Origin: Peronospora farinosa | Lineage: Eukaryota > Oomycota > Peronosporomycetes > Peronosporales > Peronosporaceae | Direction of reading: 5' to 3' | Assembly: GCA_947646735.1 (NCBI GenBank) | Contig: CANTFK010000182.1 | Coordinates: 186,001 to 250,000, forward strand | Length of the DNA: 64,000 nt | In this document: positions 16,223 to 53,687 of the stretch, one piece after another | Layout of the letters: each line of letters starts with the position of its first letter | Numbering within the stretch: the first letter of the stretch is position 1 | The notes under the pieces: generated by a model | What the model saw: only the letters and a program-made list of their open reading frames with translations | Databases searched by the model: none | Told to the model about the DNA's origin: nothing | Position numbers and translations under genes: made by a program

Positions 16223-16224
16223 AG

Positions 16225-37096: not shown

Positions 37097-37278
37097 AGCG
37101 AACAGTATCTCAGCCTCTTGACGAATTGAAGAAGGTCAGAATCGAAACCATACGTCATGTAGATTCACAGCAACTGTCCGATTCATGAGCAGTTGCTGTG
37201 AATATCTATGCAGACACGACACCTTTGCTCACCGTAATAGTCTTCAATATTCAAAGTAAAGGTGGTTCAGACCAGACT
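37097..37278 (+). repeat. Left flank of the A/B nest (copy of X' locus)
   Basis: These 182 bp match the reverse complement of about 60604-60785 with few differences. They contain a stem-loop with 14-bp perfect arms (37163-37176 and 37190-37203). The last five bases, AGACT (37274-37278), are the TSD of gypsy A. Confidence 0.9.
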
Positions 37279-37738: not shown

Positions 37739-37785
37739 TCACCCCCCCCTCAACCAACAGTCACATTAGTGACTGTTTAGTGACT

Positions 37786-39552
37786 ATGGGAAAGGAGAAC
37801 TTGTTGAATTTTCTTTCATTCAACAATTACGCTATGACAAAGTCAATGCGCGTCGCTGCTAAGGCAGCCGAGAGCTCGGCTGCACGCCTGTGTGCAGCCG
37901 CTACTGAGGCTTCACAGCCTCAGCCAGCAGACACTAATGTGTCTGCTGGAAGTCAACATCAGCCTGCAACGCCTGTTGCAGGTTCACGTAGCGCTTCGCC
38001 ACGTGAAGATGTTGACCCAGAGTTAGTCGTTGACTACTCTGGCGAGTCGGATGACGCATCCGGCTCAAAGTCACCTATTCCACTCTCGGGCTCTCCCCGG
38101 GGTGATACCTCGTCGTCTAATGCTACGAAGAGGGATCGTGGTACATTGAGTGAATCAATGTACCGTGAAATGTTCGGGTCGTCTGATGAATCAGACGACT
38201 CGCCAAACGAGTCGAAGGATAGTGACTCGGGTGGGGACCGTAAGGGTGATGTCAGTGCTTCTACTGACATCAATGCTCATAGTGTCGGTACTTCTGTTGA
38301 CACTAATGCTCGTGGTGTCGGTACTTCTGTTGACACCACGCAGGAGGCTTTAGACCGCAACGTATTGCGTCTTGCTCCTGATCGCAAGCCATGGATGCTA
38401 CCTAAGCATCTGCTTTATCGTTGGTCTGGAAAGACTAACGAACGGTTACCCATACCGTTGTTTGATGCGTCAAAGCTTCATGGCCTTGACGCCAGTGCGA
38501 AGAACTTTCGCACTGAGAACGATTATTACATCGATGTGTTCCTTGTACATCGATGGTATGGCCCACACAAGAAGCGTGAGGCCGACGCGTTCCTCCAATC
38601 TTGGAACGCGTTTATCACCAACGTTTTAAGCGTTGGGAAAGAGGCTTGGTTTCAAAGACTTTTTGCTAGCCGCAATAAGTTTGAGAAACGAAGTACGTCC
38701 GGTGCATGCTATCGTTTGCACCGGTTATCTAGAGAGGCAGGCCTGTTATGCCTCTCTTGGGGCGACCCATGCCCGGGGTGCCTGAGCACCTCGTCAAGAG
38801 CGCCTAAGGAGGCGTACCTCCTTACTGAGCCCTGGTGGAGGGCTCGCATCTCTTCTGAGATGCGTGAAGGGATTGCTACTTTGCAATCCCTTTACGAGCG
38901 CGCTGGGCGCTCGTTTTCCGATGGTCCTTCACCATCGGGTGCCCCTTGTCGTACAGTTCGACAAGGCCGGGAACGTCGGCCATCAGTTGGGCCCGAGGTT
39001 CCCAGCTATCCGCCGAAGGCGGATAGCCACGCCACTGGACGAGATAACTCGTCCGACGTCCCTTCACCTCGCGGTGCTTTAGTAAGCGTTCCACGAGGAA
39101 GCGCTTCCTACCATGGGAGTCCACCAGCGGATGCGGTGGTGGAGGAAAAACCCTGTCCGATTCTTTCATCGGACTTGGCTGCTGAGTTAGACGGGTTTGC
39201 CCGTGTAACTCGTGAGCTCCGTTGTGATGTTGATCACGAACGGGATAAGCGTCGCCGCTTAGAGGACATTGTGCGACAGCTTGGGTTTGACCATGAGAAG
39301 TCTCGGGCAAACAATGCTGTCGCACTATTGGAGAATGAACGGCGGCTTCATTCTCTAAGTAACGAGCTGGCGACAGCTCGTCAGGAGATCGTCCAATATC
39401 ATGGGACGATCTCATCTCTACACGACCAGATATCGAATCTGGTTCGTGACAACAAGAATCTGAAGGGGATTCTTGAGAGTAATGGCTATCTTCGTCGTTC
39501 GAAGAAGCCGCGTACTGAACGTACGGACGAAGACGTCCCACGTAAAACGTAG
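37786..39552 (+). CDS. Antisense accessory ORF of gypsy A, 588 residues
   Basis: An uninterrupted frame on the strand opposite gag-pol, starting 47 bp inside the 3' LTR (an upstream GTG at 37780 is in frame). Residues about 15-200 are Ser/Asp/Thr-rich and look disordered. The middle (about 205-370) is folded-looking, with PWMLPKHLL, HRWYGPHKKREADAFLQSWN, SGACYRLHRLSREAG and a PWWRARI motif. Residues about 460-570 form a strong coiled coil (RDKRRRLEDIVRQLGFDHEK and following heptads), ending in a basic tail. It overlaps the chromodomain coding region of pol on the other strand. The copy in gypsy B has the same length and about nine substitutions. I recognise no known family; a nucleic-acid or Gag-like role is possible but is inference. 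Confidence 0.75.
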   Translation: MGKENLLNFLSFNNYAMTKSMRVAAKAAESSAARLCAAATEASQPQPADTNVSAGSQHQPATPVAGSRSASPREDVDPELVVDYSGESDDASGSKSPIPLSGSPRGDTSSSNATKRDRGTLSESMYREMFGSSDESDDSPNESKDSDSGGDRKGDVSASTDINAHSVGTSVDTNARGVGTSVDTTQEALDRNVLRLAPDRKPWMLPKHLLYRWSGKTNERLPIPLFDASKLHGLDASAKNFRTENDYYIDVFLVHRWYGPHKKREADAFLQSWNAFITNVLSVGKEAWFQRLFASRNKFEKRSTSGACYRLHRLSREAGLLCLSWGDPCPGCLSTSSRAPKEAYLLTEPWWRARISSEMREGIATLQSLYERAGRSFSDGPSPSGAPCRTVRQGRERRPSVGPEVPSYPPKADSHATGRDNSSDVPSPRGALVSVPRGSASYHGSPPADAVVEEKPCPILSSDLAAELDGFARVTRELRCDVDHERDKRRRLEDIVRQLGFDHEKSRANNAVALLENERRLHSLSNELATARQEIVQYHGTISSLHDQISNLVRDNKNLKGILESNGYLRRSKKPRTERTDEDVPRKT

Positions 39553-40050
39553 GATGCGTACGCATCCTGCGTGGCAACTCGATCATGTATGCGTTGCCTA
39601 GGCGGCGCAATACACGAAACGGCCGATGTACTTGGGCAACAATTTATTGCTGCCCACGTTAGTCACTACATGTTTAGGTAGGTTTACTGTTGACAGTAAA
39701 ACTAAATCACCTTCAATAAATGTCTGAGCATTTGCCCTTCCATTATTGTCTGCGTTTCGCTTTTGCTTATCCACCGCTTCCGCGATGGAATCTTGCACGA
39801 AACGGACTACCGCTTCACGAGTCAGCAGGAAATCCTCAGCTGACTCGTTGCTTTTGGCTGCAGTGCATTGTGAGTGCACTGCAGAGATATCGGTTACTAA
39901 TTCAGCGAGAACAATACTGTTCTCACTTGTGATACCTCGAACGATGCTGACATCTTCAGCATCGTTATCAGTAAGAGCGTCATCGCTCTTACTTTCTTCC
40001 TCTTCACCGAAGTCGAATGGTACGACTTCGGTTACTTTCGCGTCGACCAT
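38876..40050 (-). pseudogene. pol: Gypsy A pol C-terminal region with chromodomain
   Basis: The frame 39598-40050 starts MVDAKVTEVVPF and leads through an acidic part to LLPKYIG. One base is missing relative to gypsy B, and the frame changes near 39605. The second frame (38876-39610) continues with the SH3-like tail (RRMRTHPTFYVGRLRPYV) and a chromodomain (SYLVQWRGYPPSADSWEP, about 38990-39060). The indel lies just outside the antisense-ORF overlap. Confidence 0.85.
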
Positions 40051-43000
40051 AACGTCGACGCGTGATGAGCAAGAGCCAGATCGGTTCTCGCTCGAGCGAG
40101 TCCCTCCCCCCTTAAATTAGAGTCACCCTCTACTAAGGTGGGGACACGTGGATGGCGAAGGCCATTCACGTAGAACGGTGTATGCGTCGTGGAGGCATGC
40201 ACGGAGTTGTTGATGGCGAATTCGACCATCGACAAGAACTCACTCCAACTCGTAAACGAGTGGACGTACCCTCGAAGAATCTCTTCGAGGACGCGATTGG
40301 CGCGTTCAGTCTGACCATCAGTTTCTGGATGGTCAGAAGTAGACATTGTGAGCCGTGTTCCAAGTGTTTGGAACACGGAACGCCAAAACTCAGCCGTGAA
40401 CCGGGGGTCCCTATCGGACACAAGTTCACGGGGTAAACCGTGCAATCGAAAGATTGTATCGATAAACACTCGAGCACAGCCCTCTGCTGTGATCGACTCA
40501 GGTACAGCAACAAGATGTACCATCTTGCTGAACCTGTCCAAAAACACGAGAATACCATTATTCCCGTGAGCGTCTTTGGGAAACCCAAAGACGAAGTCCA
40601 TTGATACGGACTCCCAGCACTCTGCCGGAACAGTTAGAGGCTGCAATGGTGCACGGAGTGAAGGACTAGGCTTCACTCGTTGACACACCTCGCAAGCACG
40701 CACGTACTTGCGCACAAACTTATACTGGCGTGGCCAGTAAAAGTCGCGACTGACCGTGAGGTAGGTCTTCTCACGGCCGCGATGCCCACTTATTGGTGCA
40801 TCGTGACATTCAAACATGATCCGTAACCTGAGATCATGTTGTGGCGGTACAACGACACGAGGCGTGTCGTTGTTGACGGCTGTATAGTACAGTAAGCCGT
40901 TCCGCTGGGTGTATCGATCGAGAGAAGATCGATACATGGCAGGCAAGCGCTTCTTAGCTTGCGTGGATGGGTCCTTGAGATACTCCATCAGGCGTACAAG
41001 ATCATTATCTTGTGCGCATGCCCTTATAATGTCGTCGAGTAAGCTCGACGACAAGACGCTGGTACTCAGCGTGGCGAAAGTGGTGTTTACATCACTGTCG
41101 GATTGCACAGTCGGCTCAAGGTCAGGCCGACGTGAAAGAGCATCGGCGACGACGTTAAGTCGTCCCGGCTTATACCCCACGGAGAAGTTGTACTCCGCGA
41201 AGAACGACAACCATCTCGCCATTCGCTTCGAGAGGTGTGGACTATTTACAGCCGTGCGTAGTGACGCACGGTCTGCATATACAATGAACGGTCTATCTCC
41301 TAAGAGATAGACGCGAAACTTAGCCAGTGCATACTTCATGGCAAGGAGTTCCTTGTCATGCACCGGATAATTGCGCTCGTCCGGTTGCAGCTGACGCGAT
41401 TGATAACAGACGACACGCTCTGCGCCGTCTGTATCATATTGCATCAGTGCGCAGCCGATTACAAAATCACTGGCATCACAGACCACATGAAATGGTCTGT
41501 CTTGATCGGCAATCGCCAATACTGGCGATTGCATCAAGCTTTGCTTGATACGTTCAAAGGAACGCTGAAAATCAGCGTTCCAGTTCCACTTTACATTTTT
41601 CTTGAGTAAACAAGAAAGATGTACTGTCATTTTGGCGTAATTGCGCGAGTACTTGTGCAAGTACGCCGCTAGCCCAAGGAACATCCTTAGTCCCTTGACA
41701 TCGACTGGCACTGGCCAGTCGGTGATCGCCTTGATCTTCTCTGGATCAGGGCGTACGCCGTTCTTTCCGACGATGCACCCAAGAAGTGGTATTTCACTAG
41801 CTGCGAATATACACTTCTTGAGGTTGGCGTACAACTTATGCTCGCGCATAAGTGTAAGAACCTTACGGACGTGGAGTCTATGGACTTCCACGTCTGTTTT
41901 CCCGTCCATAGCTCGACTATGGACGAACACATCATCGAAGTAACTCGGTGCGAATTCGCGCACCGGTCTCAATAGATGTGAAACACATCTATTGAATGTG
42001 GCTGGTGCATTACTGAGCCCTTGCGGCATCACCAACCATTCCCAGAGCATACCACTGGGAGTGCTCACTGCTGTGTACGGGATGTACCGTTCACGCATTA
42101 GGATCTGATAGAAACCATCCATCAGATCCATGGACGAAAAGATGGTACTCTTAGACATACCATCTATGATTACGTCCTTTCTCGGTATCGGCGTTTGCGC
42201 CGGTATCGTTGCAGCGTTCAACTTATTGAACGCGTGCACTATCCGCCACCCTCCTGTGGCCTTGCGCACACAGAAGGTCGGAGAGCTGTGAGGTGAAGTT
42301 GACTCCCTCACATGGCCCACTGCTAGGCGATCGGCAAAGAACTTGTCGATCGCCTCGAATTGTTCCCGAGGCAGTGGCCACTGCTTCATGACACAATATT
42401 TTGTGCCAGGAACAAGGTCGATCTCGTGTCGAGTACCTTTGTCCTTAGGCAACTCGCACGGAACGGATTCAGGGAATACATCCTTGAATTCGACCAAATC
42501 CTTGTACAAAGGATTTGACTTCAGCGACTCCCAGGATTGCGATGTATATCGTTCAATCCGAGTCTTCTCATCAAGGACACTTTCGTCCATTGATGAGCTG
42601 CTGAGAACCCGTTCGTTCTCGGCAAAAACTGTTGCTGACCGAATGTCAGTCATGTACTCGTCTTCTGCGACGAGCACACAGATCTGCTTGACTTTGCCAC
42701 TACGCATATCACGCAAGAACCTTTTAGGTTCTAGCGTAGGCAACTGAGTTATCTCCGAAGTTAACTTCGGAGGCGCGATCAGATAAAGCGTATAAGCGCC
42801 TACGTTTGATCCGTCATTAACCAAGACGTTCAACGTCTTGGTTACTTCCTGGGGACTTATTCCCTCAGGGCACTGGGGACTTATTCCCTCAGTGATTATT
42901 TCCTGGGGACTTATTCCCGCAGGCTCGATGGAACCTGTTCCATCGACTTCCTCTAGCTGTGGTGGCGCAACCACAGCGAGATCCTCTACGATCAACTCTC

Positions 43001-43448
43001 CAGTTGATATAGGATTTCCGTGTTGCCGCTTCTGGGCAACCGGTTTACTCTTCGGTGAATGCTGCCCTCTAGGCGAGCATTCATGTCCCGGTCCGCTCGA
43101 CTTATTCGAGTGGTGGACCTTCGGCGCTGCCTGTGCTTGTGCACAGCTGCCGGCAGCTTGCTCCACAGCGTGACTGTCTGTCACGCTGAGTTCTTGTGCA
43201 GTCGTACTAACGACCGAACCACAAGTGAGGCCATCACACTCACTCGTAGTACATTCACACGCTTGTGAACGCTCCAAGACGTTCATCAGATGGCCATCTG
43301 ATGAACAAGCGGCAGGCATCTTCACGGTTCGATGCTGCCAGCTGACCCATGGCTCGTAATGTTCTGAGTCATGGAAATCCTTAGATGACATCAAATTTGT
43401 CATCCAGATCAAGTACGATGAAATCATCATCGTACTTTTTGCCTTCAA
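40032..43448 (-). CDS. pol: Gypsy A reverse transcriptase, RNase H and integrase
   Basis: A 1138-residue frame. It has reverse transcriptase with [34 protein letters not shown] and YFDDVFVHS, then RNase H (VVCDASDFVIGCALMQ, ADALSRRPDLE). Integrase follows with the HHCC finger (CEVCQRVK), SMDFVFGFPKDAHGNN, VSDRDPRFTAEFW and DHPETDGQTERANRV. It starts out of frame with the protease segment at 43381-43920 because of a change near 43390, so it is cut off from its gag and protease. The domains themselves are intact. It ends where the separate C-terminal frame begins. Confidence 0.9.
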   Translation of the reverse strand: MKAKSTMMISSYLIWMTNLMSSKDFHDSEHYEPWVSWQHRTVKMPAACSSDGHLMNVLERSQACECTTSECDGLTCGSVVSTTAQELSVTDSHAVEQAAGSCAQAQAAPKVHHSNKSSGPGHECSPRGQHSPKSKPVAQKRQHGNPISTGELIVEDLAVVAPPQLEEVDGTGSIEPAGISPQEIITEGISPQCPEGISPQEVTKTLNVLVNDGSNVGAYTLYLIAPPKLTSEITQLPTLEPKRFLRDMRSGKVKQICVLVAEDEYMTDIRSATVFAENERVLSSSSMDESVLDEKTRIERYTSQSWESLKSNPLYKDLVEFKDVFPESVPCELPKDKGTRHEIDLVPGTKYCVMKQWPLPREQFEAIDKFFADRLAVGHVRESTSPHSSPTFCVRKATGGWRIVHAFNKLNAATIPAQTPIPRKDVIIDGMSKSTIFSSMDLMDGFYQILMRERYIPYTAVSTPSGMLWEWLVMPQGLSNAPATFNRCVSHLLRPVREFAPSYFDDVFVHSRAMDGKTDVEVHRLHVRKVLTLMREHKLYANLKKCIFAASEIPLLGCIVGKNGVRPDPEKIKAITDWPVPVDVKGLRMFLGLAAYLHKYSRNYAKMTVHLSCLLKKNVKWNWNADFQRSFERIKQSLMQSPVLAIADQDRPFHVVCDASDFVIGCALMQYDTDGAERVVCYQSRQLQPDERNYPVHDKELLAMKYALAKFRVYLLGDRPFIVYADRASLRTAVNSPHLSKRMARWLSFFAEYNFSVGYKPGRLNVVADALSRRPDLEPTVQSDSDVNTTFATLSTSVLSSSLLDDIIRACAQDNDLVRLMEYLKDPSTQAKKRLPAMYRSSLDRYTQRNGLLYYTAVNNDTPRVVVPPQHDLRLRIMFECHDAPISGHRGREKTYLTVSRDFYWPRQYKFVRKYVRACEVCQRVKPSPSLRAPLQPLTVPAECWESVSMDFVFGFPKDAHGNNGILVFLDRFSKMVHLVAVPESITAEGCARVFIDTIFRLHGLPRELVSDRDPRFTAEFWRSVFQTLGTRLTMSTSDHPETDGQTERANRVLEEILRGYVHSFTSWSEFLSMVEFAINNSVHASTTHTPFYVNGLRHPRVPTLVEGDSNLRGEGLARARTDLALAHHASTLWSTRK

Positions 43449-43920
43449 GCGTGTAGTGAATTCCCACTACACGTTTCTTTGCTGTTACGGATGCGCCCGT
43501 TGCAAGGCGCACCGTCATCTTCGTTGGAGGGGTCTCGCGCTCAACATATTTGAGCATACGATCATCTAGCGATTGGCGTCGAACAAAGTTGTTCGAAGCC
43601 CCACAATCAACTAGGGCGCGAAGTGACATGTTCTTTGTCACTTCGATCTCCAATGTGATGAGGGATACCTCATCACTGGGAGCGGCAACACACAGTGACT
43701 GTGTGTTGGGAGCAACCTTCGTCAAGAGTCCCGCGAACTCTCTTGACGTTGCTGGATCAGTAGGGCGCTCCGCCCCTACTGACCCCGACCGTTTTTTATG
43801 GTCCACCACGTTGTTGCGATTTTGCAGCAGCGTGGGACCCACGTCTCTGGCCCTTCTTGGCAGACGGTCGATCGTCACTCCCAGTGTTACGAGACACTGG
43901 GCGTGTGGAACTTCACTCAT
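43381..43920 (-). pseudogene. Gypsy A gag-pol junction and protease segment
   Basis: The frame contains the post-frameshift linker (KKRSGSVGAERPTDP) and the protease with LRALVDCGASNNFVRRQSL. The catalytic motif reads Asp-Cys-Gly instead of the usual Asp-Ser/Thr-Gly; gypsy B has the same residue. The frame stops after LDLDDKFDVI, where gypsy B continues without a break. Confidence 0.85.
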
Positions 43921-44959
43921 AAGCGTAGTGGCCCAACTTCTGACAGCGATTGCACTTTTGCAATCGCTTGTACCCTGGAGAGCGAGGTCGCTCGCTCTCT
44001 ACATAGGAGAGGTCCATTGGTTCTGGACCTCCGCCCTCCTGTCGTCTCGGTGGACGATAGGATCCCGAGTGGACGTGAGCCTGTTGTAGGCTAAAGTCCT
44101 CCTGTTCCGCTGCAGAGATCGCTTGATCCAGCGATTCCAATTCCAAGCGGAACAGGTGGGTCTTGACAGGACCATCTGTCAGACCCTTGATGAACACAGT
44201 AACCTGCGTGTGTTCATCGATTGGGTTCAGTACGATACAACTAACGATGTATCGCACGTGTTGGGCGTAAGCTTGTATATCACGCTTACCCTGTTTCAAA
44301 TCCAGGAGCTCAGCCCGAGCCCTGAATTCGGCGCAAGGCGGTTCAAACGTGTGTTTGAGCCGCGCCTTGAAGACGTCATACGTTGGGAAAACGTATGGGT
44401 CGTGCAGTTTGAGCCCTAAGGCCCAAGCTTTGGCACGTCCTGCCAAGTTCGACATGGCGAACTTGACCTTCATCGCATCGTCATCGATGCGACGAGCCTC
44501 AATGGCATCGTCGAGCTCGACGAACCAGCTCAACAAGGAGTCGCTTTCGACTGCCTTGTACTTGGAGACATCAATCTTCAAGGACTCGGGTCGACGTGCA
44601 TACGCCGACCCGGCAGCAACAGCACTATCCTGCTGTTGTCTCAACAGTTCAGACTGTTGAGCACCCTGCTGCATCAACAAGTCAGCTTGTTGAGCGCCTT
44701 GTTCTCTCAACAGTTCAACCTGTTGAGAACCTTGATCCTCTAGCAAGGTGAGTTTCTTTACGACTTCGTCAAGTTCATGTTGTATGAACTTGGCGATGGT
44801 TGCATGTTGGTCGTCTTCGCTAAGAGAGAGCAACATGGCACCAACGGCAGGGTTGCCGATGGTTTCAGCCATACGCTGAACCGCATTCCATTCGAGGTCA
44901 CTCAAATGGCGGAAATCATCACGCGTTGCGTGATGACGTTCATCACCCGCTGATTCCAT
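43913..44959 (-). pseudogene. gag: Gypsy A gag, truncated in the zinc knuckle
   Basis: From the ATG at 44959 the frame encodes a matrix-like N-terminus and a Gln-rich heptad stretch (EQGAQQADLLMQQGAQQSEL). A capsid with KFAMSNLAGRAKAWALG and FEPPCAEFRARAELLDLKQG follows, then the first half of a CCHC knuckle (CNRCQKLGHYAYE). It ends at a TGA where gypsy B continues with the last Cys, so nucleocapsid function would be lost. Confidence 0.88.
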
Positions 44960-44992
44960 AGCGGGTGGTGCGGTGGTCGCTGAACGGACCAA

Positions 44993-45004
44993 CAAGTGCT
45001 ACCA
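44993..45004 (-). promoter_or_regulatory. Primer-binding site of gypsy A
   Basis: On the minus strand TGGTAGCACTTG starts two bases from the 5' LTR edge at 45007, as in gypsy B and gypsy C. Confidence 0.75.
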
Positions 45005-45006
45005 GG

Positions 45007-45205
45007 TGTAATGGGGCACCCTCCGACTATACTGATTACAGTATAGTCTACTTTCACTGATTACAGTATAGTCTACTTTCACTGATTACAGTGAAAGCAG
45101 GTGCCTCAATTACCTCTCTTACACAAGAGGCAGAGGAAGCTTTACTTCTAAACAAACGCTTAGAAGTAGAGGAAAAGAAAATTGTATTTAATATAGTTAA
45201 CTATT
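45007..45205 (-). repeat. Proximal part of the gypsy A 5' LTR
   Basis: Begins TGTAATGGGG and matches the first part of 37279-37738, with an extra tandem copy of about 26 bp (TCTACTTTCACTGATTACAG unit). It breaks off at GTTAACTAT, where gypsy B begins. The rest of this LTR is at 53397-53687. Confidence 0.93.
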
Positions 45206-45667
45206 TGTAACGGGGTGAGCCCGTTACATAATATTGACACTTATATGAAGTGTCAATAAAAATATTATTATAACTAATAATATTTTGACAATATTACCTT
45301 TTCTTATAATATTGTTCCTAGATCTCCTTGAAGTTGGAGATGCCCTCTCATTGGTTGATATGGGCCATCATATCAACCAACGCGCTGACCAATGACCGAT
45401 GGACGCGCGCAATGAGTGGAGGGCAAGTTGTCAACATACATAGTTGTAGTTTAATATAGTTAACATAGGTTATAACAGATTAGTTTTATTAAGATAGTTA
45501 ACTATATTAAATACAGTTTTCTTTTCCTCTACTTCTAAGCGTTTGTTTAGAAGTATAAGCTTCCTCTGCCTCTCGTGTACGTGAGGTATTTGAGGCACCT
45601 GCTTTCACTGTAATCAGTGAAAGTAGACTATACTGTAATCAGTATAGTCGGAGGGTGCCCCATTACA
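45206..45667 (+). repeat. 5' LTR of gypsy B
   Basis: 462 bp, TGTAACGGGG to CCATTACA. It differs from the 3' LTR by a small cluster of changes around one hairpin (about 45552-45590) and is otherwise almost identical. Confidence 0.95.
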
Positions 45668-45669
45668 CC

Positions 45670-45680
45670 TGGTAGCACTT
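45670..45680 (+). promoter_or_regulatory. Primer-binding site of gypsy B
   Basis: TGGTAGCACTT lies two bases after the 5' LTR and could pair with a tRNA ending AAGTGCTACCA, probably initiator tRNA-Met. Confidence 0.75.
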
Positions 45681-45714
45681 CGTGGTCCGTTCAGCGACCA
45701 CCGCACCATCCGCT

Positions 45715-46899
45715 ATGGAATCAGCGGGTGATGAACGTCATCACGCAACGCGTGATGATTTCCGCCATTTGAGTGACCTCGAATGGAATGCGGTTCAGCG
45801 TATGGCTGAAACCATCGGCAACCCTGCCGTTGGTGCCATGTTGCTCTCTCTTAGCGGAGACGACCAACATGCAACCATCGCCAAGTTCATACAACATGAA
45901 CTTGACGAAGTTGTAAAGAAACTCACCTTGCTAGAGGAGCAAGGTTCTCAACAGGTTGAACTGTTGAGAGAACAAGGCGCTCAACAAGCTGACTTGTTGA
46001 TGCAGCAGGGTGCTCAACAGTCTGAACTGTTGAGACAACAGCAGGCTAGTGCTGTTGCTGCCGGGTCGACGTATACACGTCGACCCGAGTCCTTGAAGAT
46101 TGATGTCTCCAAGTACAAGGCAGTCGAAAGCGACTCCTTGTTGAGATGGTTCGTCGAGCTCGACGATGCCATTGAGGCTCGTCGCATCGATGACGATGCG
46201 ATGAAGGTCAAGTTCGCCATGTCGAACTTGGCAGGACGTGCCAAAGCTTGGGCCTTAGGGCTCAAACTGCACGACCCATACGTTTTCCCAACGTATGACG
46301 TCTTCAAGGCGCGGCTCAAACACACGTTTGAACCGCCTCGCGCCGAATTCAGGGCTCGGGCTGAGCTCCTGGATTTGAAACAGGGTAAGCGTGATATACA
46401 CGCTTACGCCCAACACGTACGATACCTCGTTAGCTGTATCGTACTGAACCCAATCGATGAACACACGCAGGTTACTGTGTTCATCAAGGGTCTGACAGAT
46501 GGTCCTGTCAAGACCCACCTGTTCCGCTTGGAACTAGAATCGCTGGATCAAGCGATCTCTGCAGCGGAACAGGAGGACTTTAGCCTACAACAGGCTCACG
46601 TCCACTCGGGATCCTATCGTCCACCGAGACGACAGGAGGGCGGAGGTCCAGAACCAATGGACCTCTCCTATGTAGAGAGCGAGCGACCTCGCTCTCCAGG
46701 GTACAAGCGATTGCAAAAGTGCAATCGCTGTCAGAAGTTGGGCCACTACGCTTATGAGTGTAGTGCCCCACGCCCAGTGTCTCGTAACACTGGGAGTGAC
46801 GATCGACCGTCTGCCAAGAAGGGCCAGAGACGTGGGTCCCACGTTGCTGCGAAATCGCAACAACGTGGTGGACCATCAAAAAACGGTCGGGGTCAGTAG
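45715..46899 (+). CDS. gag: Gypsy B Gag, 394 residues
   Basis: I chose the ATG at 45715; the frame is open further up, but only from a GTG at 45682. The N-terminal part leads to a Gln/Leu heptad stretch (residues about 75-115), a capsid with KFAMSNLAGRAKAWALG and FEPPRAEFRARAELLDLKQG, then a basic linker and one CCHC knuckle (CNRCQKLGHYAYEC, 46721-46762). A Lys/Arg-rich tail follows. It would assemble the particle and package RNA. Close to its end lies an in-phase slippery heptamer that redirects some ribosomes into pol. Confidence 0.93.
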   Translation: MESAGDERHHATRDDFRHLSDLEWNAVQRMAETIGNPAVGAMLLSLSGDDQHATIAKFIQHELDEVVKKLTLLEEQGSQQVELLREQGAQQADLLMQQGAQQSELLRQQQASAVAAGSTYTRRPESLKIDVSKYKAVESDSLLRWFVELDDAIEARRIDDDAMKVKFAMSNLAGRAKAWALGLKLHDPYVFPTYDVFKARLKHTFEPPRAEFRARAELLDLKQGKRDIHAYAQHVRYLVSCIVLNPIDEHTQVTVFIKGLTDGPVKTHLFRLELESLDQAISAAEQEDFSLQQAHVHSGSYRPPRRQEGGGPEPMDLSYVESERPRSPGYKRLQKCNRCQKLGHYAYECSAPRPVSRNTGSDDRPSAKKGQRRGSHVAAKSQQRGGPSKNGRGQ

Positions 46900-46918
46900 G
46901 GGCGGAGCGCCCTACTGA
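46878..46918 (+). promoter_or_regulatory. -1 programmed ribosomal frameshift signal (gag-pol)
   Basis: The heptamer A-AAA-AAC (46878-46884) lies in the gag frame exactly as a -1 slippery site requires (codons AAA and AAC). Eight bases downstream is a strong stem: TCAGTAGGG (46893-46901) pairs with CCCTACTGA (46910-46918) around an 8-base loop. The gag stop (46897-46899) is inside the stem. A -1 shift enters the pol frame, which is open here. Gypsy A keeps both the heptamer and the stem. Confidence 0.85.
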
Positions 46919-49900
46919 TCCAGCAACGTCAAGAGAGTTCGCGGGACTCTTGACGAAGGTTGCTCCCAACACACAGTCACTGTGTGTTGCCGCTCCCAGT
47001 GATGAGGTATCCCTCATCACATTGAAGATCGAAGTGACAAAGAACATGTCACTTCGCGCCCTAGTTGATTGTGGGGCTTCGAACAACTTTGTTCGACGCC
47101 AATCGCTAGATGATCGTAGGCTCAAATATGTTGAGCGCGAGACCCCTCCAACGAGGATGACGGTGCGCCTTGCAACTGGCGCATCCGTAACAGTAAAGAA
47201 ACGTGTAGTGGGAATTCACTACACGCTTGAAGGCAAAAAGTACGATGATGATTTCATCGTACTTGATCTGGATGACAAATTTGATGTCATCCTAGGATTA
47301 CCATGGCTCAGAAGGTACGAGCCATGGGTCAGCTGGCAGCATCGAACCGTGAAGATGCCTGCCGCTTGTTCATCAGATGGCCATCTGATGAACGTCTTGG
47401 AGCGTTCACAAGCGTGTGAATGTACTACGAGTGAGTGTGATGGCCTCACTTGTGGTTCGGTCGTTAGTACGACTGCACAAGAACTCAGCGTGACAGACAG
47501 TCACGCTGTGGAGCAAGCTGCCGGCGGCTGTGCACAAGCACAGGCAGCGCCGAAGGTCCACCACTCGAATAAGTCGAGTGGACCGGGACATGAATGCTCG
47601 CCTAGAGGGCAGCATTCACCGAAGAGTAAACCGGTTGCCCAGAAGCGGCAACACGGTAATCCTAGATCAACTGGAGAGTTGATCGTAGAGGATCTCGCTG
47701 TGGTTGCGCCACCACAGCTAGAGGAAGTCGATGGAACAAGTTCCATCGAGCCTGCGGGAATAAGTCCCCAGGAAATAATCACTGAGGGAATAAGTCCCCA
47801 GTGCCCTGAGGGAATAAGTCCCCAGGAAGTAACCGAGACGTTGAACGTCTTGGTTAATGACGGATCAAACGTAGGCGCTTATACGCTTGATCTGATCGCG
47901 CCTCCGAAGTTAACTTCGGAGATAACTCAGTTGCCTACGCTAGAACCTAAAAGGTTCTTGCGTGATCTGCGTAGTGGCAAAGTCAAGCAGATCTGTGTGC
48001 TCGTCGCAGAGGACGAGTACATGACTGACATTCGGTCAGCAACAGTTTTTGCCGAGAACGAACGGGTTCTCAGCAGCTCATCAATGGACGAAAGTGTCCT
48101 TGATGAGAAGACTCGGATTGAGCGATATACATCGCAATCCTGGGAGTCGCTGAAGTCAAATCCTTTGTACAAGGATTTGGTCGAATTCAAGGATGTATTC
48201 CCTGAATCCGTTCCGTGCGAGTTGCCTAAGGATAAAGGTACTCGACACGAGATCGACCTTGTTCCTGGCACAAAATATTGTGTCATGAAGCAGTGGCCAC
48301 TGCCTCGGGAACAGGTCGAGGCGATCGACAAGTTCTTTGCCGATCGCCTAGCAGCGGGCCATGTGAGGGAGTCAACTTCACCTCACAGCTCTCCGACCTT
48401 CTGTGTGCGCAAGGCCACAGGAGGGTGGCGGATAGTGCACGCGTTCAATAAGTTGAACGCTGCAACGATACCGGCGCAAACGCCGATACCGAGAAAGGAC
48501 GTAATCATAGATGGTATGTCTAAGAGTACCATCTTTTCGTCCATGGATCTGATGGATGGTTTCTATCAGATCCTAATGCGTGAACGGGACATCCCGTACA
48601 CAGCAGTGAGCACTCCCAGTGGTATGCTCTGGGAATGGTTGGTGATGCCGCAAGGGCTTAGTAATGCACCAGCCACATTCAATAGATGTGTTTCACATCT
48701 ATTGAGACCGGTGCGCGAATTCGCACCGAGTTACTTCGATGATGTGTTCGTCCATAGTCGAGCTATGGACGGGAAAACAGACGTGGAAGTCCATAGACTC
48801 CACGTCCGTAAGGTTCTTACACTTATGCGCGAGCATAAGTTGTACGCCAACCTCAAGAAGTGTATATTCGCAGCTAGCGAAATACCACTTCTTGGGTGCA
48901 TCGTCGGAAAGAACGGCGTACGCCCTGATCCAGAGAAGATCAAGGCGATCACCGACTGGCCAGTGCCAGTCGATGTCAAGGGACTAAGGAAGTTCCTTGG
49001 GCTAGCGGCGTACTTGCACAAGTACTCGCGCAATTACGCCGAAATGACAGTACATCTTTCTTGTTTACTCAAGAAAAATGTAAAGTGGAACTGGAACGCT
49101 GATTGTCAGCGTTCCTTTGAACGTATCAAGCAAAGCTTGATGCAATCGCCAGTATTGGCGATTGCCGATCAAGACAGACCATTTCATGTGGTCTGTGACG
49201 CCAGTGATTTTGCAATCGGCTGCGCACTGATGCAATATGATACAGACGGCGCAGAGCGTGTCGTCTGTTATCAATCGCGTCAGCTGCAACCGGCCGAGCG
49301 CAATTACCCGGTGCATGACAAGGAACTCCTTGCCATGAAGTATGCACTGGCTAAGTTTCGCGTCTATCTCTTAGGAGATAGACCGTTCATTGTATATACA
49401 GACCATGCGTCACTACGCACGGCTGTAAATAGTCCACACCTCTCGCAACGAATGGCGAGATGGTTGTCGTTCTTCGCGGAGTACAACTTCTCCGTGGAGT
49501 ATAAACCGGGACGACTTAACGTCGTCGCCGATGCTCTTTCACGTCGGCCTGACCTAGAGCCGACTGTGCAATCCGACAGTGATGTGAACACCACTGTCGC
49601 CACGCTGAGTACCAGCGTCTTGTCGTCGAGCTTACTCGACGACATTAGAAGGGCATGCGCACAAGATAATGATCTTGTACGCCTGATGGAGTACCTCAAG
49701 GACCCATCCACGCAAGCTAAGAAGCGCTTGCCTGCCATGTATCGATCTTCTCTCGATCGATACACCCAGCGGAACGGCTTACTGTACTACACAGCCGTCA
49801 ACAACGACACGCCTCGTGTCGTTGTACCGCCACAACATGATCTCAGGTTACGGATCATGTTTGAATGTCACGATGCACCAATAAGTGGGCATCGCGGCCG

Positions 49901-50669
49901 TGAGAAGACTTACCTCACGGTCAGTCGCGACTTTTACTGGCCACGCCAGTATAAGTTTGTGCGCAAGTACGTGCGTGCTTGCGAGGTGTGTCAACGAGTG
50001 AAGCCTAGTCCTTCACTCCGTGCACCATTGCAGCCTCTACCTGTTCCGGCAGAGTGCTGGGAGTCCGTATCAATGGACTTCGTCTTTGGGTTTCCCAAAG
50101 ACGCTCACGGGAATAATGGTATTCTCGTGTTTGTAGACAGGTTCAGCAAGATGGTACATCTTGTTGCTGTACCTGAGTCGATCACAGCAGAGGGCTGTGC
50201 TCGAGTGTTTATCGATACAATCTTTCGATTGCACGGTTTACCCCGTGAACTTGTGTCCGATAGGGACCCCCGGTTCACGGCTGAGTTTTGGCGTTCCGTG
50301 TTCCAAACACTTGGAACACGGCTCACAATGTCTACTTCTGACCATCCAGAAACTGATGGTCAGACTGAACGCGCCAATCGCGTCCTCGAAGAGATTCTTC
50401 GAGGGTACGTCCACTCGTTTACGAGTTGGAGTGAGTTCTTGTCGATGGTCGAATTCGCCATCAACAACTCCGTGCATGCCTCCACGACGCATACACCGTT
50501 CTACGTGAATGGCCTTCGCCATCCACGTGTCCCCACCTTAGTAGAGGGTGACTCTAATTTAAGGGGGAGGGACTCGCTCGAGCGAGAACCAATCTGGCTC
50601 TTGCTCATCACGCGACGACGTTATGGTCGACGCGAAAGTAACCGAAGTCGTACCATTCGACTTCGGTGA
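46884..50669 (+). CDS. pol: Gypsy B Pol: protease, RT, RNase H, integrase
   Basis: Expressed by -1 frameshift from gag. The protease has LRALVDCGASNNFVRRQSL (Asp-Cys-Gly). A variable linker carries three GISPQE-type repeats (about 47757-47830). Reverse transcriptase has [34 protein letters not shown] and YFDDVFVHS (about 48735-48760). RNase H has VVCDASDFAIGCALMQ and YTDHASLRT, ending ADALSRRPDLE. Integrase has HHCC ending CEVCQRVK, SMDFVFGFPKDAHGNN, VSDRDPRFTAEFW and DHPETDGQTERANRV. After about 50565 the frame is out of phase with the related copy (five versus six G) and runs to a stop in unrelated residues. Confidence 0.93.
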   Translation, partial: RSGSVGAERPTDPATSREFAGLLTKVAPNTQSLCVAAPSDEVSLITLKIEVTKNMSLRALVDCGASNNFVRRQSLDDRRLKYVERETPPTRMTVRLATGASVTVKKRVVGIHYTLEGKKYDDDFIVLDLDDKFDVILGLPWLRRYEPWVSWQHRTVKMPAACSSDGHLMNVLERSQACECTTSECDGLTCGSVVSTTAQELSVTDSHAVEQAAGGCAQAQAAPKVHHSNKSSGPGHECSPRGQHSPKSKPVAQKRQHGNPRSTGELIVEDLAVVAPPQLEEVDGTSSIEPAGISPQEIITEGISPQCPEGISPQEVTETLNVLVNDGSNVGAYTLDLIAPPKLTSEITQLPTLEPKRFLRDLRSGKVKQICVLVAEDEYMTDIRSATVFAENERVLSSSSMDESVLDEKTRIERYTSQSWESLKSNPLYKDLVEFKDVFPESVPCELPKDKGTRHEIDLVPGTKYCVMKQWPLPREQVEAIDKFFADRLAAGHVRESTSPHSSPTFCVRKATGGWRIVHAFNKLNAATIPAQTPIPRKDVIIDGMSKSTIFSSMDLMDGFYQILMRERDIPYTAVSTPSGMLWEWLVMPQGLSNAPATFNRCVSHLLRPVREFAPSYFDDVFVHSRAMDGKTDVEVHRLHVRKVLTLMREHKLYANLKKCIFAASEIPLLGCIVGKNGVRPDPEKIKAITDWPVPVDVKGLRKFLGLAAYLHKYSRNYAEMTVHLSCLLKKNVKWNWNADCQRSFERIKQSLMQSPVLAIADQDRPFHVVCDASDFAIGCALMQYDTDGAERVVCYQSRQLQPAERNYPVHDKELLAMKYALAKFRVYLLGDRPFIVYTDHASLRTAVNSPHLSQRMARWLSFFAEYNFSVEYKPGRLNVVADALSRRPDLEPTVQSDSDVNTTVATLSTSVLSSSLLDDIRRACAQDNDLVRLMEYLKDPSTQAKKRLPAMYRSSLDRYTQRNGLLYYTAVNNDTPRVVVPPQHDLRLRIMFECHDAPISGHRGREKTYLTVSRDFYWPRQYKFVRKYVRACEVCQRVKPSPSLRAPLQPLPVPAECWESVSMDFVFGFPKDAHGNNGILVFVDRFSKMVHLVAVPESITAEGCARVFIDTIFRLHGLPRELVSDRDPRFTAEFWRSVFQTLGTRLTMSTSDHPETDGQTERANRVLEEILRGYVHSFTSWSEFLSMVEFAINNSVHASTTHTPFYVNGLRHPRVPTLVEGDSNLRGRDSLEREPIWLLLITRRRYGRRESNRSRTIRLR

Positions 50670-51798
50670 AGAGGAAGAAAGTAAGAGCGATGACGCTCTT
50701 ACTGATAACGATGCTGAAGATATCAGCATCGTTCGAGGTATCACAAGTGAGAACAGTAATGTTCTCGCTGAATTAGTAACCGATATCTCTGCAGTGCACT
50801 CACAATGCACTGCAGCCAAAAGCAACGAGTCAGCTGAGGATTTCCTGCTGACTCGTGAAGCGGTAGTCCGTTTCGTGCAAGACTCCATCGCAGAAGCGGT
50901 GGATAAGCAAAAGCGAAACGCAGACAATAATGGAAGGGCAAATGCTCAGACATTTATTGAAGGTGATTTAGTTTTACTGTCAACAGTAAACCTACCTAAA
51001 CATGTAGTGACTAACGTGGGCAGCAATAAATTGTTGCCCAAGTACATCGGCCCGTTTCGTGTATTGCGCCGCCTAGGCAACGCATACACGATCGAGTTGC
51101 CACGCAGGATGCGTACGCATCCTACGTTTTACGTGGGACGTCTTCGTCCGTACGTTCAGTACGCGGCTTCTTCGAACGACGAAGATAGCCATTACTCTCA
51201 AGAATCCCCTTCAGATTCTTGTTGTCACGAACCAGATTCGATACCTGGTCGTGTAGAGATGAGATCGTCCCATGATATTGGACGATCTCCTGACGAGCTG
51301 TCGCCAGCTCGTTACTTAGAGAATGAAGCCGCCGTTCATTCTCCAATAGTGCGACAGCATTGTTTGCCCGAGACTTCTCATGGTCAAACCCAAGCTGTCG
51401 CACAATGTCCTCTAAGCGGCGACGCTTATCCCGTTCGTGATCAACATCACAACGGAGCTCACGAGTTACACGGGCAAACCCGTCTAACTCAGCAGCCAAG
51501 TCCGATGAAAGAATCGGACAGGGTTTTTCCTCCACCACCGCATCCGCTGGTGGACTCCCATGGTGGGAAGCGCTTCCTCGTGGAACGCTTACTAAAGCAC
51601 CGCGAGGTGAAGGGACGTCGGACGAGTTATCTCGTCCGGTGGCGTGGCTATCCGCCTTCGGCGGATAGCTGGGAACCTCGGGCCCAACTGATGGCCGACG
51701 TTCCCGGCCTTGTCGAACAGTACGACAAGGGGCACCCGATGGTGAAGGACCATCGGAAAACGAGCGCCCAGCGCGCTCGTAAAGGGATTGCAAAGTAG
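50623..51798 (+). CDS. pol: Gypsy B Pol C-terminal ORF with chromodomain
   Basis: A 391-residue frame starting MVDAKVTEVVPFDFGEEEES, overlapping the end of the upstream frame. After an acidic part come EAVVRFVQDSIAEAVDKQKR, the SH3-like integrase tail LLPKYIGPFRVLRRLGN and RRMRTHPTFYVGRLRPYV. A Pro/Ser/His-rich linker and a chromodomain (KRFLVERLLKHREV to YLVRWRGYPPSADSWEP, about 51560-51680) follow. Chromodomains of such elements guide integration to marked chromatin. Both A and B hold this part in a frame different from the integrase. From 51122 to 51798 it overlaps the antisense ORF. Confidence 0.88.
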   Translation: MVDAKVTEVVPFDFGEEEESKSDDALTDNDAEDISIVRGITSENSNVLAELVTDISAVHSQCTAAKSNESAEDFLLTREAVVRFVQDSIAEAVDKQKRNADNNGRANAQTFIEGDLVLLSTVNLPKHVVTNVGSNKLLPKYIGPFRVLRRLGNAYTIELPRRMRTHPTFYVGRLRPYVQYAASSNDEDSHYSQESPSDSCCHEPDSIPGRVEMRSSHDIGRSPDELSPARYLENEAAVHSPIVRQHCLPETSHGQTQAVAQCPLSGDAYPVRDQHHNGAHELHGQTRLTQQPSPMKESDRVFPPPPHPLVDSHGGKRFLVERLLKHREVKGRRTSYLVRWRGYPPSADSWEPRAQLMADVPGLVEQYDKGHPMVKDHRKTSAQRARKGIAK

Positions 51799-52888
51799 CA
51801 ATCCCTTCACGCATCTCAGAAGAGATGCGAGCCCTCCACCAGGGCTCAGTAAGGAGGTACGCCTCCTTAGGCGCTCTTGACGAGGTGCTCAGGCACCCCG
51901 GGCATGGGTCGCCCCAAGAGAGGCATAACAGGCCTGCCTCTCTAGATAACCGGTGCAAACGATAGCATGCACCGGACGTACTTCGTTTCTCAAACTTATT
52001 GCGGCTAGCATAAAGTCTTTGAAACCAAGCCTCTTTCCCAACGTTTAAAACGTTGGTGATAAACGCGTTCCAAGATTGGAGGAACGCGTCAGCCTCACGC
52101 TTCTTGTGTGGGCCATACCATCGATGTTCAAGGAACACATCGATGTAATAATCGTTCTCAGTGCGAAAGTTCTTCGCACTGGCGTCAAGGCCATGAAGCT
52201 TTGACGCATCAAACAACGGTATGGGGAACCGTTCGTTGGTCTTTCCAGACCAACGATCAAGCAGATGCTTAGGTAGCATCCATGGCTTGCGATCAGGAGC
52301 AAGACGCAATACGTTGCGGTCTAAAGCCTCCTGCGTGGTGTCAACAGAAGTACCGACACCACGAGCATTAGTGTCAACAGAAGTACCGACACTATGAGCA
52401 TTGATGTCAGTAGAAGCACTGACATCACCCTTACGGTCCCCACCCGAGTCACTATCCTTCGACTCGTTTGGCGAGTCGTCTGATTCATCAGACGACCCGA
52501 ACATTTCACGGTACATTGATTCACTCAATGTACCACGATCCCTCTTCGTAGCATTAGACGACGAGGTATCACCCCGGGGAGAGCCCGGGAGTGGAATAGG
52601 TGACTTTGAGCCGGATGCGTCATCCGACTCACCAGAGTAGTCAACGACTAACTCTGGGTCAACATCTTCACGTGGCGAAGCGCTACGTGAACCTGCAACA
52701 GGCGTTGCAGGCTGATGTTGACTTCCAGCAGACACATTAGTGTCTGCTGGCTGAGGCTGTGAAGCCTCAGTAGCGGCTGCACACAGGCGTGCAGCCGAGC
52801 TCTTGGCTGCCTTAGCAGCGACGCGCATTGACTTTGTCATAGCGTAATTGTTGAATGAAAGAAAATTCAACAAGTTCTCCTTTCCCAT
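51122..52888 (-). CDS. Antisense accessory ORF of gypsy B, 588 residues
   Basis: Same length, start context (47 bp inside the 3' LTR at 52936) and domain order as the gypsy A copy: disordered Ser/Asp-rich N-terminus with SVGTSVDTN-type repeats, central Trp-rich region (HRWYGPHKKREADAFLQSWN), and a C-terminal coiled coil and basic tail. I count about nine substitutions between the copies and no indel or stop over 1767 bp, although the sense genes of A carry several disruptions. The last 677 bp of the frame lie opposite the pol C-terminal ORF. Transcription would have to start in or near the 3' LTR, reading leftward. Family unknown. Confidence 0.75.
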   Translation of the reverse strand: MGKENLLNFLSFNNYAMTKSMRVAAKAAKSSAARLCAAATEASQPQPADTNVSAGSQHQPATPVAGSRSASPREDVDPELVVDYSGESDDASGSKSPIPLPGSPRGDTSSSNATKRDRGTLSESMYREMFGSSDESDDSPNESKDSDSGGDRKGDVSASTDINAHSVGTSVDTNARGVGTSVDTTQEALDRNVLRLAPDRKPWMLPKHLLDRWSGKTNERFPIPLFDASKLHGLDASAKNFRTENDYYIDVFLEHRWYGPHKKREADAFLQSWNAFITNVLNVGKEAWFQRLYASRNKFEKRSTSGACYRLHRLSREAGLLCLSWGDPCPGCLSTSSRAPKEAYLLTEPWWRARISSEMREGIATLQSLYERAGRSFSDGPSPSGAPCRTVRQGRERRPSVGPEVPSYPPKADSHATGRDNSSDVPSPRGALVSVPRGSASHHGSPPADAVVEEKPCPILSSDLAAELDGFARVTRELRCDVDHERDKRRRLEDIVRQLGFDHEKSRANNAVALLENERRLHSLSNELATARQEIVQYHGTISSLHDQVSNLVRDNKNLKGILESNGYLRRSKKPRTERTDEDVPRKT

Positions 52889-52935
52889 AGTCACTAAACA
52901 GTCACTAATGTGACTGTTGGTTGAGGGGGGGGTGA

Positions 52936-53396
52936 TGTAACGGGGTGAGCCCGTTACATAATATTGACACTTATATGAAGTGTCAATAAAAATATTATTA
53001 TAACTAATAATATTTTGACAATATTACCTTTTCTTATAATATTGTTCCTAGATCTCCTTGAAGTTGGAGATGCCCTCTCATTGGTTGATATGGGCCATCA
53101 TATCAACCAACGCGCTGACCAATGACCGATGGACGCGCGCAATGAGTGGAGGGCAAGTTGTCAACATACATAGTTGTAGTTTAATATAGTTAACATAGGT
53201 TATAACAGATTAGTTTTATTAAGATAGTTAACTATATTAAATACAGTTTTCTTTTCCTCTACTTCTAAGCGTTTGTTTAGAAGTAAAGCTTCCTCTGCCT
53301 CTTGTGTAAGAGAGGTAATTGAGGCACCTGCTTTCACTGTAATCAGTGAAAGTAGACTATACTGTAATCAGTATAGTCGGAGGGTGCCCCATTACA
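52936..53396 (+). repeat. 3' LTR of gypsy B
   Basis: 461 bp, TGTAACGGGG to CCATTACA, directly after the purine tract 52923-52935 (a run of nine G within it). Confidence 0.95.
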
Positions 53397-53687
53397 CTAT
53401 CTTAATAAAACTTATCTGTTATAACCTATGTTAACTATATTAAACTACAACTATGTATGTTGACGACTTGCCCTCCACTCATTGCGCGCGTCCATCGGTC
53501 ATTGGTCAGCGCGTTGGTTGATATGATGGCCCATATCAACCAATGAGAGGGCATCTTCAACTTCAAGGAGATCTAGGAACAATATTATTAGAAAAGGTAA
53601 TATTGTCAAAATATTATTAGTCATAATAATATTTTATTGACACTTCATATAAGTGTCAATATTATGTAACGGGCTCACCCCGTTACA
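53397..53687 (-). repeat. Distal part of the gypsy A 5' LTR
   Basis: Begins at CTATCTTAATAAAAC, continuing where 45007-45205 breaks off (allowing for the short target duplication), and ends CCCGTTACA at 53687, followed by AGACT. Confidence 0.93.

What the first reader, a model, noticed from the sequence alone, without database searches (positions are those of the whole stretch)
45206..53396. A whole gypsy retrotransposon written as a chain of short perfect hairpins
In gypsy B (and its sibling A) perfect inverted repeats with 7-11-bp arms and short loops follow one another with hardly a gap, through LTRs, gag, pol and the antisense ORF. In 48680-48840 six occur in 161 bp. By a rough count, a random 160-bp stretch should hold about 0.03 repeats with 8-bp arms and loops up to 12 bases. 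Gypsy D (24-bp palindrome at 36696-36719; CGACTGCTTAAGCAGTCG near 36960) and the gypsy C LTRs show the same tendency more weakly; copia E does not. Keeping this in coding DNA restricts both codon choice and protein sequence. Possible causes are repeated template switching that converts imperfect into perfect palindromes, or selection on RNA folding (packaging, or escape from or feeding of small-RNA silencing). I know of no named description of such a coding architecture.
Basis: seen in the sequence. Interest (0 to 1): 0.92.

Follow-up and report, generated by a model that had tools for sequence, protein, structure and literature searches.

The report
Retrotransposon built of perfect hairpins
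A jumping gene in a plant-parasitic water mould is packed from end to end with short perfect hairpins, some twenty times more than chance, even inside its protein-coding parts; the pattern is real and extreme, and why it exists is still open.

Summary
Gypsy A/B (family "F1") has 17.2 perfect inverted repeats per kb (arm >=7, loop <=15); shuffles give 0.8/kb and three other stretches of the window about 1/kb; with arm >=9 it is 151 against 0.9. Codon-preserving shuffles do not reproduce it. Folding energy is about 49% below dinucleotide shuffles on both strands; the highest whole-genome value in the virus paper whose passages I saw is 23.4%. All 68 loci read, 51 distinct elements with A and B, carry it. 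Hairpins lie in LTRs, gag, pol, the dual-coded stretch and the antisense ORF alike, and almost none is at a homologous place in the one sister-family copy aligned. Variants private to one copy ignore the hairpins; those in four or more sequences avoid the arms. Nine exact loop inversions point to strand switching between arms. I read this as an extreme genome-scale ordered structure in a retrotransposon, kept by constraint on copies that propagate and probably fed by template switching. Named relatives: GORS, and coding palindromes of hairworm mitochondria. Shielding from silencing is inferred only.

The parts
45206..53396 (+). gypsy B, complete F1 element; 143 perfect hairpins with arm >=7 and loop <=15
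45206..45667 (+). B 5' LTR, 9 hairpins with arm >=7, 19.5/kb
45682..46899 (+). gag ORF (Retrotrans_gag, Ty3_capsid), 23 hairpins vs 2.4 in codon shuffles
46950..50669 (+). pol ORF (protease, RT, RNase H, integrase), 56 hairpins vs 4.8
50623..51798 (+). C-terminal pol ORF with SH3_Tf2-1 and chromodomain, 19 hairpins vs 1.7
51122..52894 (-). antisense ORF of 590 aa, no Pfam family at E 0.001; 36 hairpins vs 3.1; overlaps the chromodomain ORF at 51122-51798, where density is 17.7/kb
52936..53396 (+). B 3' LTR
37303..45204 (-). gypsy A, second copy of F1 in opposite orientation; 87 of the 100 B hairpins (arm >=8) that it covers are perfect in A; B is inserted in A's 5' LTR
53396..53687 (-). remainder of A's 5' LTR beyond the B insertion
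48679..48840 (.). example stretch: five perfect hairpins with arms 12, 7, 9, 8, 8
35207..37302 (+). 3' part of gypsy D, folding energy 34% below shuffles (10 windows); repeats denser after about 36000

Best explanation
F1 is a chromodomain-type Ty3/gypsy LTR retrotransposon of a Peronospora-like downy mildew. Its whole sequence, on both strands, has been driven to a dense chain of short near-perfect hairpins: an extreme form of genome-scale ordered structure. SHOWN: the hairpins far exceed codon-preserving chance; they lie in all regions alike; almost none is at a homologous place in the one sister-family copy aligned; variants found in four or more sequences avoid the arms while private ones do not; loops are sometimes exactly inverted between intact arms. 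INFERRED: the inversions are template switching; the pressure acts during the element's own replication cycle, on its single-stranded RNA and/or cDNA, and asks for folding as such rather than for particular hairpins; template switching supplies or perfects arms, and selection keeps those the proteins can tolerate. The likeliest benefit is that sense and antisense strands lack open stretches, so they anneal poorly to each other and to small RNAs and escape silencing.
For: Density and codon-shuffle tests. Folding energy per 150 nt about 50% below codon shuffles for gag and pol on both strands, z about -15 and -26, and 48.5% / 49.5% below dinucleotide shuffles in 350-nt windows. Graded in other LTR elements: D 34%, C 12.7%, F2 11.5%, copia E 8.6%; other stretches 3.1% (includes copia sequence) and -0.1%. 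Constraint, 50 other elements placed on B, sites where B carries the commonest base: variants in one sequence arm 0.255, loop 0.286, spacer 0.267 (no difference); in >=4 sequences arm 13 of 1498, loop 14 of 475, spacer 69 of 3143 (p 0.002 and 0.001). Synonymous only, >=4: one, arm 4:62, spacer 28:154, loop 6:17 (p 0.017 arm vs loop, 0.056 arm vs spacer, 0.040 arm vs both). Imperfect stems are in excess too: in pol 23 one-mismatch stems vs 2.2 in codon shuffles, beside 39 perfect vs 1.1, the graded outcome expected when protein and pairing pull against each other. Hairpin stability is more uniform than arm length and composition imply (SD 3.07 vs 3.14-4.31 in 100 resamplings). In the RT region hairpins sit where the protein is variable. 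No unpaired run longer than 15 nt in the local fold of F1, against 27 in copia E and 41 in 56-64 kb.
Against: G-U pairs, which selection on sense RNA should tolerate, are not favoured: fixed one-mismatch stems G.T 8, A.C 17, other 17; outer mismatches G.T 21, A.C 24, other 73 of 118. No compensated pair is shared by four or more copies, one is shared by two, and double Watson-Crick changes (10 counted, in 7 places) do not exceed slid controls (0-16). No stable-tetraloop preference stands out in the 31 four-base loops printed. The stability result rests partly on the AT-rich LTRs: length vs GC has rho -0.12, p 0.26 without them. Variants in 2-3 sequences are not depleted in arms (p 0.33-0.38), and the synonymous arm-spacer contrast alone is p 0.056. 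Lower mutability of paired bases during reverse transcription could mimic selection. No small-RNA or probing data were available.
Confidence: 0.5

Rival explanations
1. Neutral mutational drive: template switching during reverse transcription or host replication converts imperfect into perfect inverted repeats again and again, and the element accumulates them because nothing removes them except protein constraint. The hairpins have no function.
For: Nine distinct exact loop inversions between intact arms among F1 copies, 0.85 expected (copies). Same footprint as spacer inversions in yeast genes (PMC8604942, passages) and template-switch footprints in RNA genes (PMC8794818, passages). Watson-Crick pairing with no G-U preference. 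Similar density in coding and non-coding parts. Same mechanism proposed for hairworm mitochondria (PMC6649704 Discussion).
Against: Conversion should turn about half of new arm mutations into compensated pairs (my reasoning); none is shared by >=4 copies and doubles do not exceed slid controls. One-mismatch stems are about ten times in excess, unlike the binary pattern reported for hairworms. Arms are depleted of propagated variants. Does not explain why F1 is so far above copia E and F2 in the same cell.
Confidence: 0.3
2. Protected arms: bases paired in the folded RNA or cDNA are damaged or miscopied less often, so arms simply mutate less in the replication phase. This preserves hairpins without selection, whatever created them.
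For: Variants in >=4 sequences are mostly transitions (91 of 107) and loops carry the highest share of them; variants in one sequence, many of them post-insertion, are uniform.
Against: Does not create hairpins. The spectrum in >=4 sequences is strand-symmetric (C>T 26, G>A 24, T>C 20, A>G 21), with no single-strand deamination signature.
Confidence: 0.12
3. A DNA-level role: hairpins act in single-stranded minus-strand cDNA or as cruciforms in the integrated element, for example in strand transfer or cDNA protection.
For: Pairing is Watson-Crick and folding nearly equal on both strands. A.C outnumbers G.T among fixed mismatches 17:8, which would be G.T wobble on the minus strand (not significant against 1:1). 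F2 outer mismatches show the same lean, 10:2.
Against: Arm variants in >=4 sequences show no such lean (G.T 7, A.C 5), nor do B's outer mismatches (21:24). Hairpins differ in sequence and I saw no common motif, though I ran no motif search.
Confidence: 0.07
4. Artefact of assembly or composition.
For: None found, beyond the possibility that single-copy loop inversions arose in library preparation.
Against: The hairpins recur in 51 distinct elements on many contigs, with their own variants. Composition is removed by the shuffles.
Confidence: 0.01

Closest known systems
[quoted passage not shown]
   Same: Hundreds of consecutive stem-loops through coding sequence, measured by folding energy against shuffles; pairings poorly conserved between relatives (PMC7642675 passages; here).
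   Different: Here an LTR retrotransposon, coding and LTR alike; mean 48.5% against 7.5-10.7% for HCV, about 15% for SARS-CoV-2 and 23.4% for the highest whole-genome value given there (one SARS-CoV-2 gene peaks above 50%); stems without G-U preference and folding equal on both strands.
Coding palindromes of Nematomorpha mitochondrial genes
   Same: Perfect inverted repeats inside protein genes, tolerated by the protein, scattered and gained or lost between species (PMC6649704 abstract, Discussion, Results part 1).
   Different: There 110 repeats of >=15 bp in four genomes of about 15 kb, mean 43 bp, without an excess of imperfect ones. Here denser and shorter (arms mostly 7-11 bp), imperfect stems also in excess, in a mobile element.
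Template-switch mutations at inverted repeats (quasi-palindrome correction, spacer inversion)
   Same: Loop replaced by its exact reverse complement between intact arms, as in yeast genes (PMC8604942 passages).
   Different: There ten such events in coding genes of yeast strains; here in an element already saturated with hairpins, and arm conversion itself is not seen in excess.
Ty3/gypsy chromodomain LTR retrotransposons (chromoviruses; class name recalled)
   Same: gag, protease, RT, RNase H, integrase, SH3 and chromodomain, two LTRs.
   Different: Antisense ORF of 590 aa without Pfam match, and the hairpin architecture.

Membership tests
Ty3/gypsy LTR retrotransposon with chromodomain | LTRs, gag, pol order protease-RT-RNase H-integrase, chromodomain | tested here: met
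Genome-scale ordered RNA structure | folding energy well below sequence-matched shuffles throughout the genome | tested here: met
   45 of 45 windows of 350 nt between 32.9% and 66.9% on the sense strand; codon shuffles
Genome-scale ordered RNA structure | individual pairings not conserved between relatives | tested here: met
   of 56 F1 pol hairpins 52 could be fully aligned; 14 of their 448 pairs, in two hairpins, are in an F2 hairpin; one F2 copy examined
Genome-scale ordered RNA structure | structure forms in the RNA in the cell and affects persistence | not testable with these tools
   no probing, expression or small-RNA data
Genome-scale ordered RNA structure | G-U pairs accepted as in RNA stems (expectation recalled, not a published criterion of GORS) | tested here: not met
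Coding palindromes (Nematomorpha type) | perfect inverted repeats inside intact coding sequence | tested here: met
Coding palindromes (Nematomorpha type) | binary: no excess of imperfect repeats | tested here: not met
   23 one-mismatch stems vs 2.2 in codon shuffles in pol
Template-switch maintained hairpins | loop inversions | tested here: met
   9 distinct, 0.85 expected
Template-switch maintained hairpins | excess of simultaneous compensatory changes in arms | tested here: not met
   10 double changes in 7 places; slid controls 0-16
Known structured RNA family | match in Rfam 15 | tested here: not met
   0 matches at gathering score in 37280-53700

The most novel reading that the evidence does not exclude
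A whole mobile element carries a second, element-wide code: every part of it, on both strands, is kept foldable into short perfect duplexes, so that neither its transcripts nor their antisense nor its cDNA ever presents an open stretch. That would be a sequence-independent counter-defence against silencing, built into coding DNA by template switching and held by selection, with weaker versions in the other LTR elements of the same genome.
Probability: 0.3. Interest if true: 0.92.

Novelty: new variant of a known kind. Interest (0 to 1): 0.8.

Why it matters
It would extend genome-scale ordered structure from RNA viruses to a retrotransposon, at about twice the strongest whole-genome value in the paper whose passages I saw, and makes an old question testable: do perfect stems arise by selection for folding or by template switching? 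Dozens of recent copies lie in one genome beside weaker relatives, so variant frequencies, loop inversions, small RNAs and probing can be compared under one cell's conditions. Such density may also affect sequencing and assembly of these genomes.

Tried and rejected
Sense-strand RNA selection with G-U tolerance: looked for in enclosed, outer and inner mismatches and in frequency classes; no consistent strand signal. Compensatory evolution: the 10 double changes looked like an excess over a rough chance figure I had worked out (about 1.6; it stands in a notebook entry); the slid-partner control removed that excess. Codon register: no clear depletion of third-to-third pairing. Conserved positions between F1 and F2: two hairpins. 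Old F1 copies as a window on deeper history: the four I could fetch are 1.5-9% from B, and 12 sites (2 in arms) looked like lineage changes, too few to use. Arm length against GC as proof of selection on stability: holds with LTRs, not without. Bending of the protein by hairpins: F1 departs from the majority residue in 3 of 15 arm columns against 6 of 121 others at 80-95% conservation, but in 1 of 13 against 17 of 45 at 60-80%, so no consistent sign. Which allele makes the longer arm at 139 shared sites: major 60, minor 37, equal 42, expected under decay as well as selection. Relatives in viral contigs: none confirmed. D-family comparison: one compensated pair, few informative pairs. Rfam: nothing.

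Mended on checking. The pileup behind and the p values had 66 rows, but 13 elements stood in it as two or three pieces, so some private variants were counted as shared. One search merges them (50 elements besides B) and its numbers replace the earlier ones; the contrast at >=4 sequences stays, the synonymous one is a little weaker.

Rows dropped before counts: B's own loci (L002, L010, L049) and L069, L070 were left out of the pileup; L071-L078 were not in it; columns with fewer than 12 sequences (8 gives the same picture), the LTRs, and sites where B lacks the commonest base were left out of the variant classes. The one-mismatch count needed at least 5 other copies (42 of 42 stems had them).
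Full report
What was checked. A and B together (37303-53687) hold 282, 17.2 per kb, against 13.5 in dinucleotide shuffles; with arm >=9 it is 151 against 0.9. Three other stretches (1-9 kb, 22-33 kb, 53.7-64 kb) lie at the chance level of about 1 per kb. Codon-preserving shuffles, which keep protein and codon use, give 2.4 for gag (23 seen), 4.8 for pol (56), 1.7 for the chromodomain ORF (19) and 3.1 for the antisense ORF (36). The density is similar in LTR (19.5/kb), gag (18.9), pol (15.0), dual-coded stretch (17.7) and antisense-only stretch (21.9). Small corrections: five, not six, repeats in 48679-48840 at these settings, and copia E has a slight tendency too.

What the element is. Pfam finds Retrotrans_gag, aspartyl protease, RT, RNase H, integrase, SH3_Tf2-1 and chromodomain: a chromodomain-type Ty3/gypsy element. 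A 590-aa antisense ORF without Pfam family has relatives in Peronospora matthiolae and Hyaloperonospora at 37-49% identity, besides closer P. effusa matches. B sits inside A's 5' LTR in opposite orientation, flanked by the repeat CTAT. In its genome (46.85 Mb, 274 contigs) the RT search listed 95 matches, 94 of 4331 candidates having been scored: 62 of family F1 (identity 82% or more) and 33 of a sister family F2 at 69-71%. These are lower bounds.

All copies read share it. The 68 loci fetched around the best DNA, RT and chromodomain matches (L001-L068; 51 distinct elements with A and B) carry 11.0-18.4 repeats per kb; the three lowest are loci partly outside F1 or the most diverged one. The most diverged copy read later (L076, 9% from B) has 5.8 per kb, so the feature decays after insertion and is not renewed in place.

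Folding. In 150-nt windows gag and pol fold about 50% more stably than codon shuffles on both strands, z about -15 for gag and -26 for pol. In the style used for viruses (350-nt windows, dinucleotide shuffles) F1 averages 48.5% sense and 49.5% antisense; all 45 sense windows exceed 32%. Gypsy D has 34.2%, gypsy C 12.7%, F2 11.5%, copia E 8.6%, and two other stretches 3.1% (with some copia sequence) and -0.1%. The virus paper gives 7.5-10.7% for HCV, about 15% for SARS-CoV-2 with one gene peaking above 50%, and 23.4% as the highest recorded for a whole genome (PMC7642675, passages); its shuffles and windows resemble mine but are not identical. Thus the LTR elements sampled here show a tendency, and F1 is far beyond it.

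Turnover. In the codon alignment of F1 and F2 pol (54% aa identity over 1217 positions), 52 of 56 F1 hairpins could be placed; 14 of their 448 pairs, in two hairpins, are also in an F2 hairpin. Folding as such, not particular hairpins, is what these relatives share. Only one F2 copy was read (L069).

Constraint or drive. I placed 50 other elements, mostly in part, on B (which corrects earlier counts). Variants in one sequence, many of them changes after insertion, fall evenly: arm 0.255, loop 0.286, spacer 0.267 per site. Variants in at least four sequences, which must have passed through transposition or duplication, are 13 of 1498 in arms (0.9%), 11 of 1092 in weak stems (1.0%), 14 of 475 in loops (2.9%) and 69 of 3143 in spacers (2.2%) at sites where B carries the commonest base (arm vs loop p 0.002, arm vs spacer p 0.001). 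Synonymous changes alone give >=4: one of 4:62 in arms, 28:154 in spacers, 6:17 in loops (p 0.017 arm vs loop, 0.056 arm vs spacer, 0.040 arm vs both). The class of 2-3 sequences shows no depletion. Copies are related, so these p values are rough. Conversion by template switching could also remove arm variants, but by my reasoning would leave about as many compensated pairs; none is shared by four or more copies, one by two, and double changes do not exceed slid controls. So constraint, or lower mutability of paired bases, acts now.

Footprints of template switching. Nine distinct loops in other copies are the exact reverse complement of B's loop between intact arms, 0.85 expected by a random-base control among 452 clusters. 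Six are in one copy each; one is in three copies on one contig and one in two copies on one contig (possibly local duplicates), and one in two copies on different contigs. Such spacer inversions are known from yeast genes (PMC8604942, passages). They point to strands switching between arms but do not say when: the host polymerase after insertion would do as well as the reverse transcriptase.

Pairing quality. Perfect stems are accompanied by an excess of one-mismatch stems (pol: 23 vs 2.2 by chance, beside 39 perfect vs 1.1); all 42 in B are imperfect in most other copies too. This graded pattern suits a pull between protein and pairing and differs from the binary pattern of hairworm mitochondria (PMC6649704). 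G.T mismatches are not favoured (8, against A.C 17 and others 17), and stems end without G.T preference (21 of 118, A.C 24). That weakens selection on sense RNA alone and suits pairing needed on both strands or at the DNA level; the A.C lean is not significant against 1:1.

Cost to the protein. In the RT region, aligned with 120 homologues, codons wholly inside arms lie in less conserved columns (mean 0.72 vs 0.82) and carry the majority residue less often (0.695 vs 0.831). In columns at least 95% conserved F1 does not deviate in arms (0 of 11). At 80-95% it deviates in 3 of 15 arm columns against 6 of 121 others, but at 60-80% in 1 of 13 against 17 of 45. So hairpins sit where the protein is free; that they bent it is not shown.

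Verdict. The best account is an extreme genome-scale ordered structure in a retrotransposon, with template switching as a source of perfect arms and constraint in the replicating lineage as the keeper. The benefit I think likeliest, escape from silencing by having no open stretch (none longer than 15 nt in the local fold), is inference. Neutral drive remains a serious rival.

Noticed in passing
window 51122-52894 (-): 590-aa antisense ORF without Pfam family, with relatives in Peronospora matthiolae and Hyaloperonospora at 37-49% identity; one source names a relative 'Core-binding (CB) domain-containing', another 'RxLR effector candidate'.
   Followed up: partly
window 45200-45206 and 53396-53401: B is inserted in A's 5' LTR in opposite orientation with a CTAT repeat at both ends; A plus B form a 16-kb inverted pair.
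   Followed up: yes
window 57472-58614 and 28171-29265: ORFs that look like secreted RxLR-type effectors (motif RHLR ... ESER in the first, recognised from memory), inside a roughly 5-kb duplicated stretch (blocks between 24418-29817 and 55101-59575, 74-96% identical).
   Followed up: no
window 9048-22169 and L069: The other LTR elements read (gypsy C, copia E, F2) also fold 8-13% better than shuffles while 53.7-64 kb does not, so a common weaker pressure on LTR elements in this genome is possible.
   Followed up: partly
L069:2278-2673: F2 carries tandem 66-bp units inside its long open frame.
   Followed up: no
L074:900-1500: Very high hairpin count (20 in one 300-bp bin) in the flank of a D-family copy, perhaps another dense element or simple TA repeats.
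   Followed up: no
G000:C189:149991-167671 and C25:97449-109696: Several F1 copies lie a few kb apart on the same contigs, in both orientations on C189: local duplication or nested insertion.
   Followed up: no
window 50746-50769 and 50789-50815: Alleles that lengthen B's hairpins occur in many other copies (22 and 21 pileup rows; rows, not elements), as if longer hairpins were spreading or B had lost them.
   Followed up: partly
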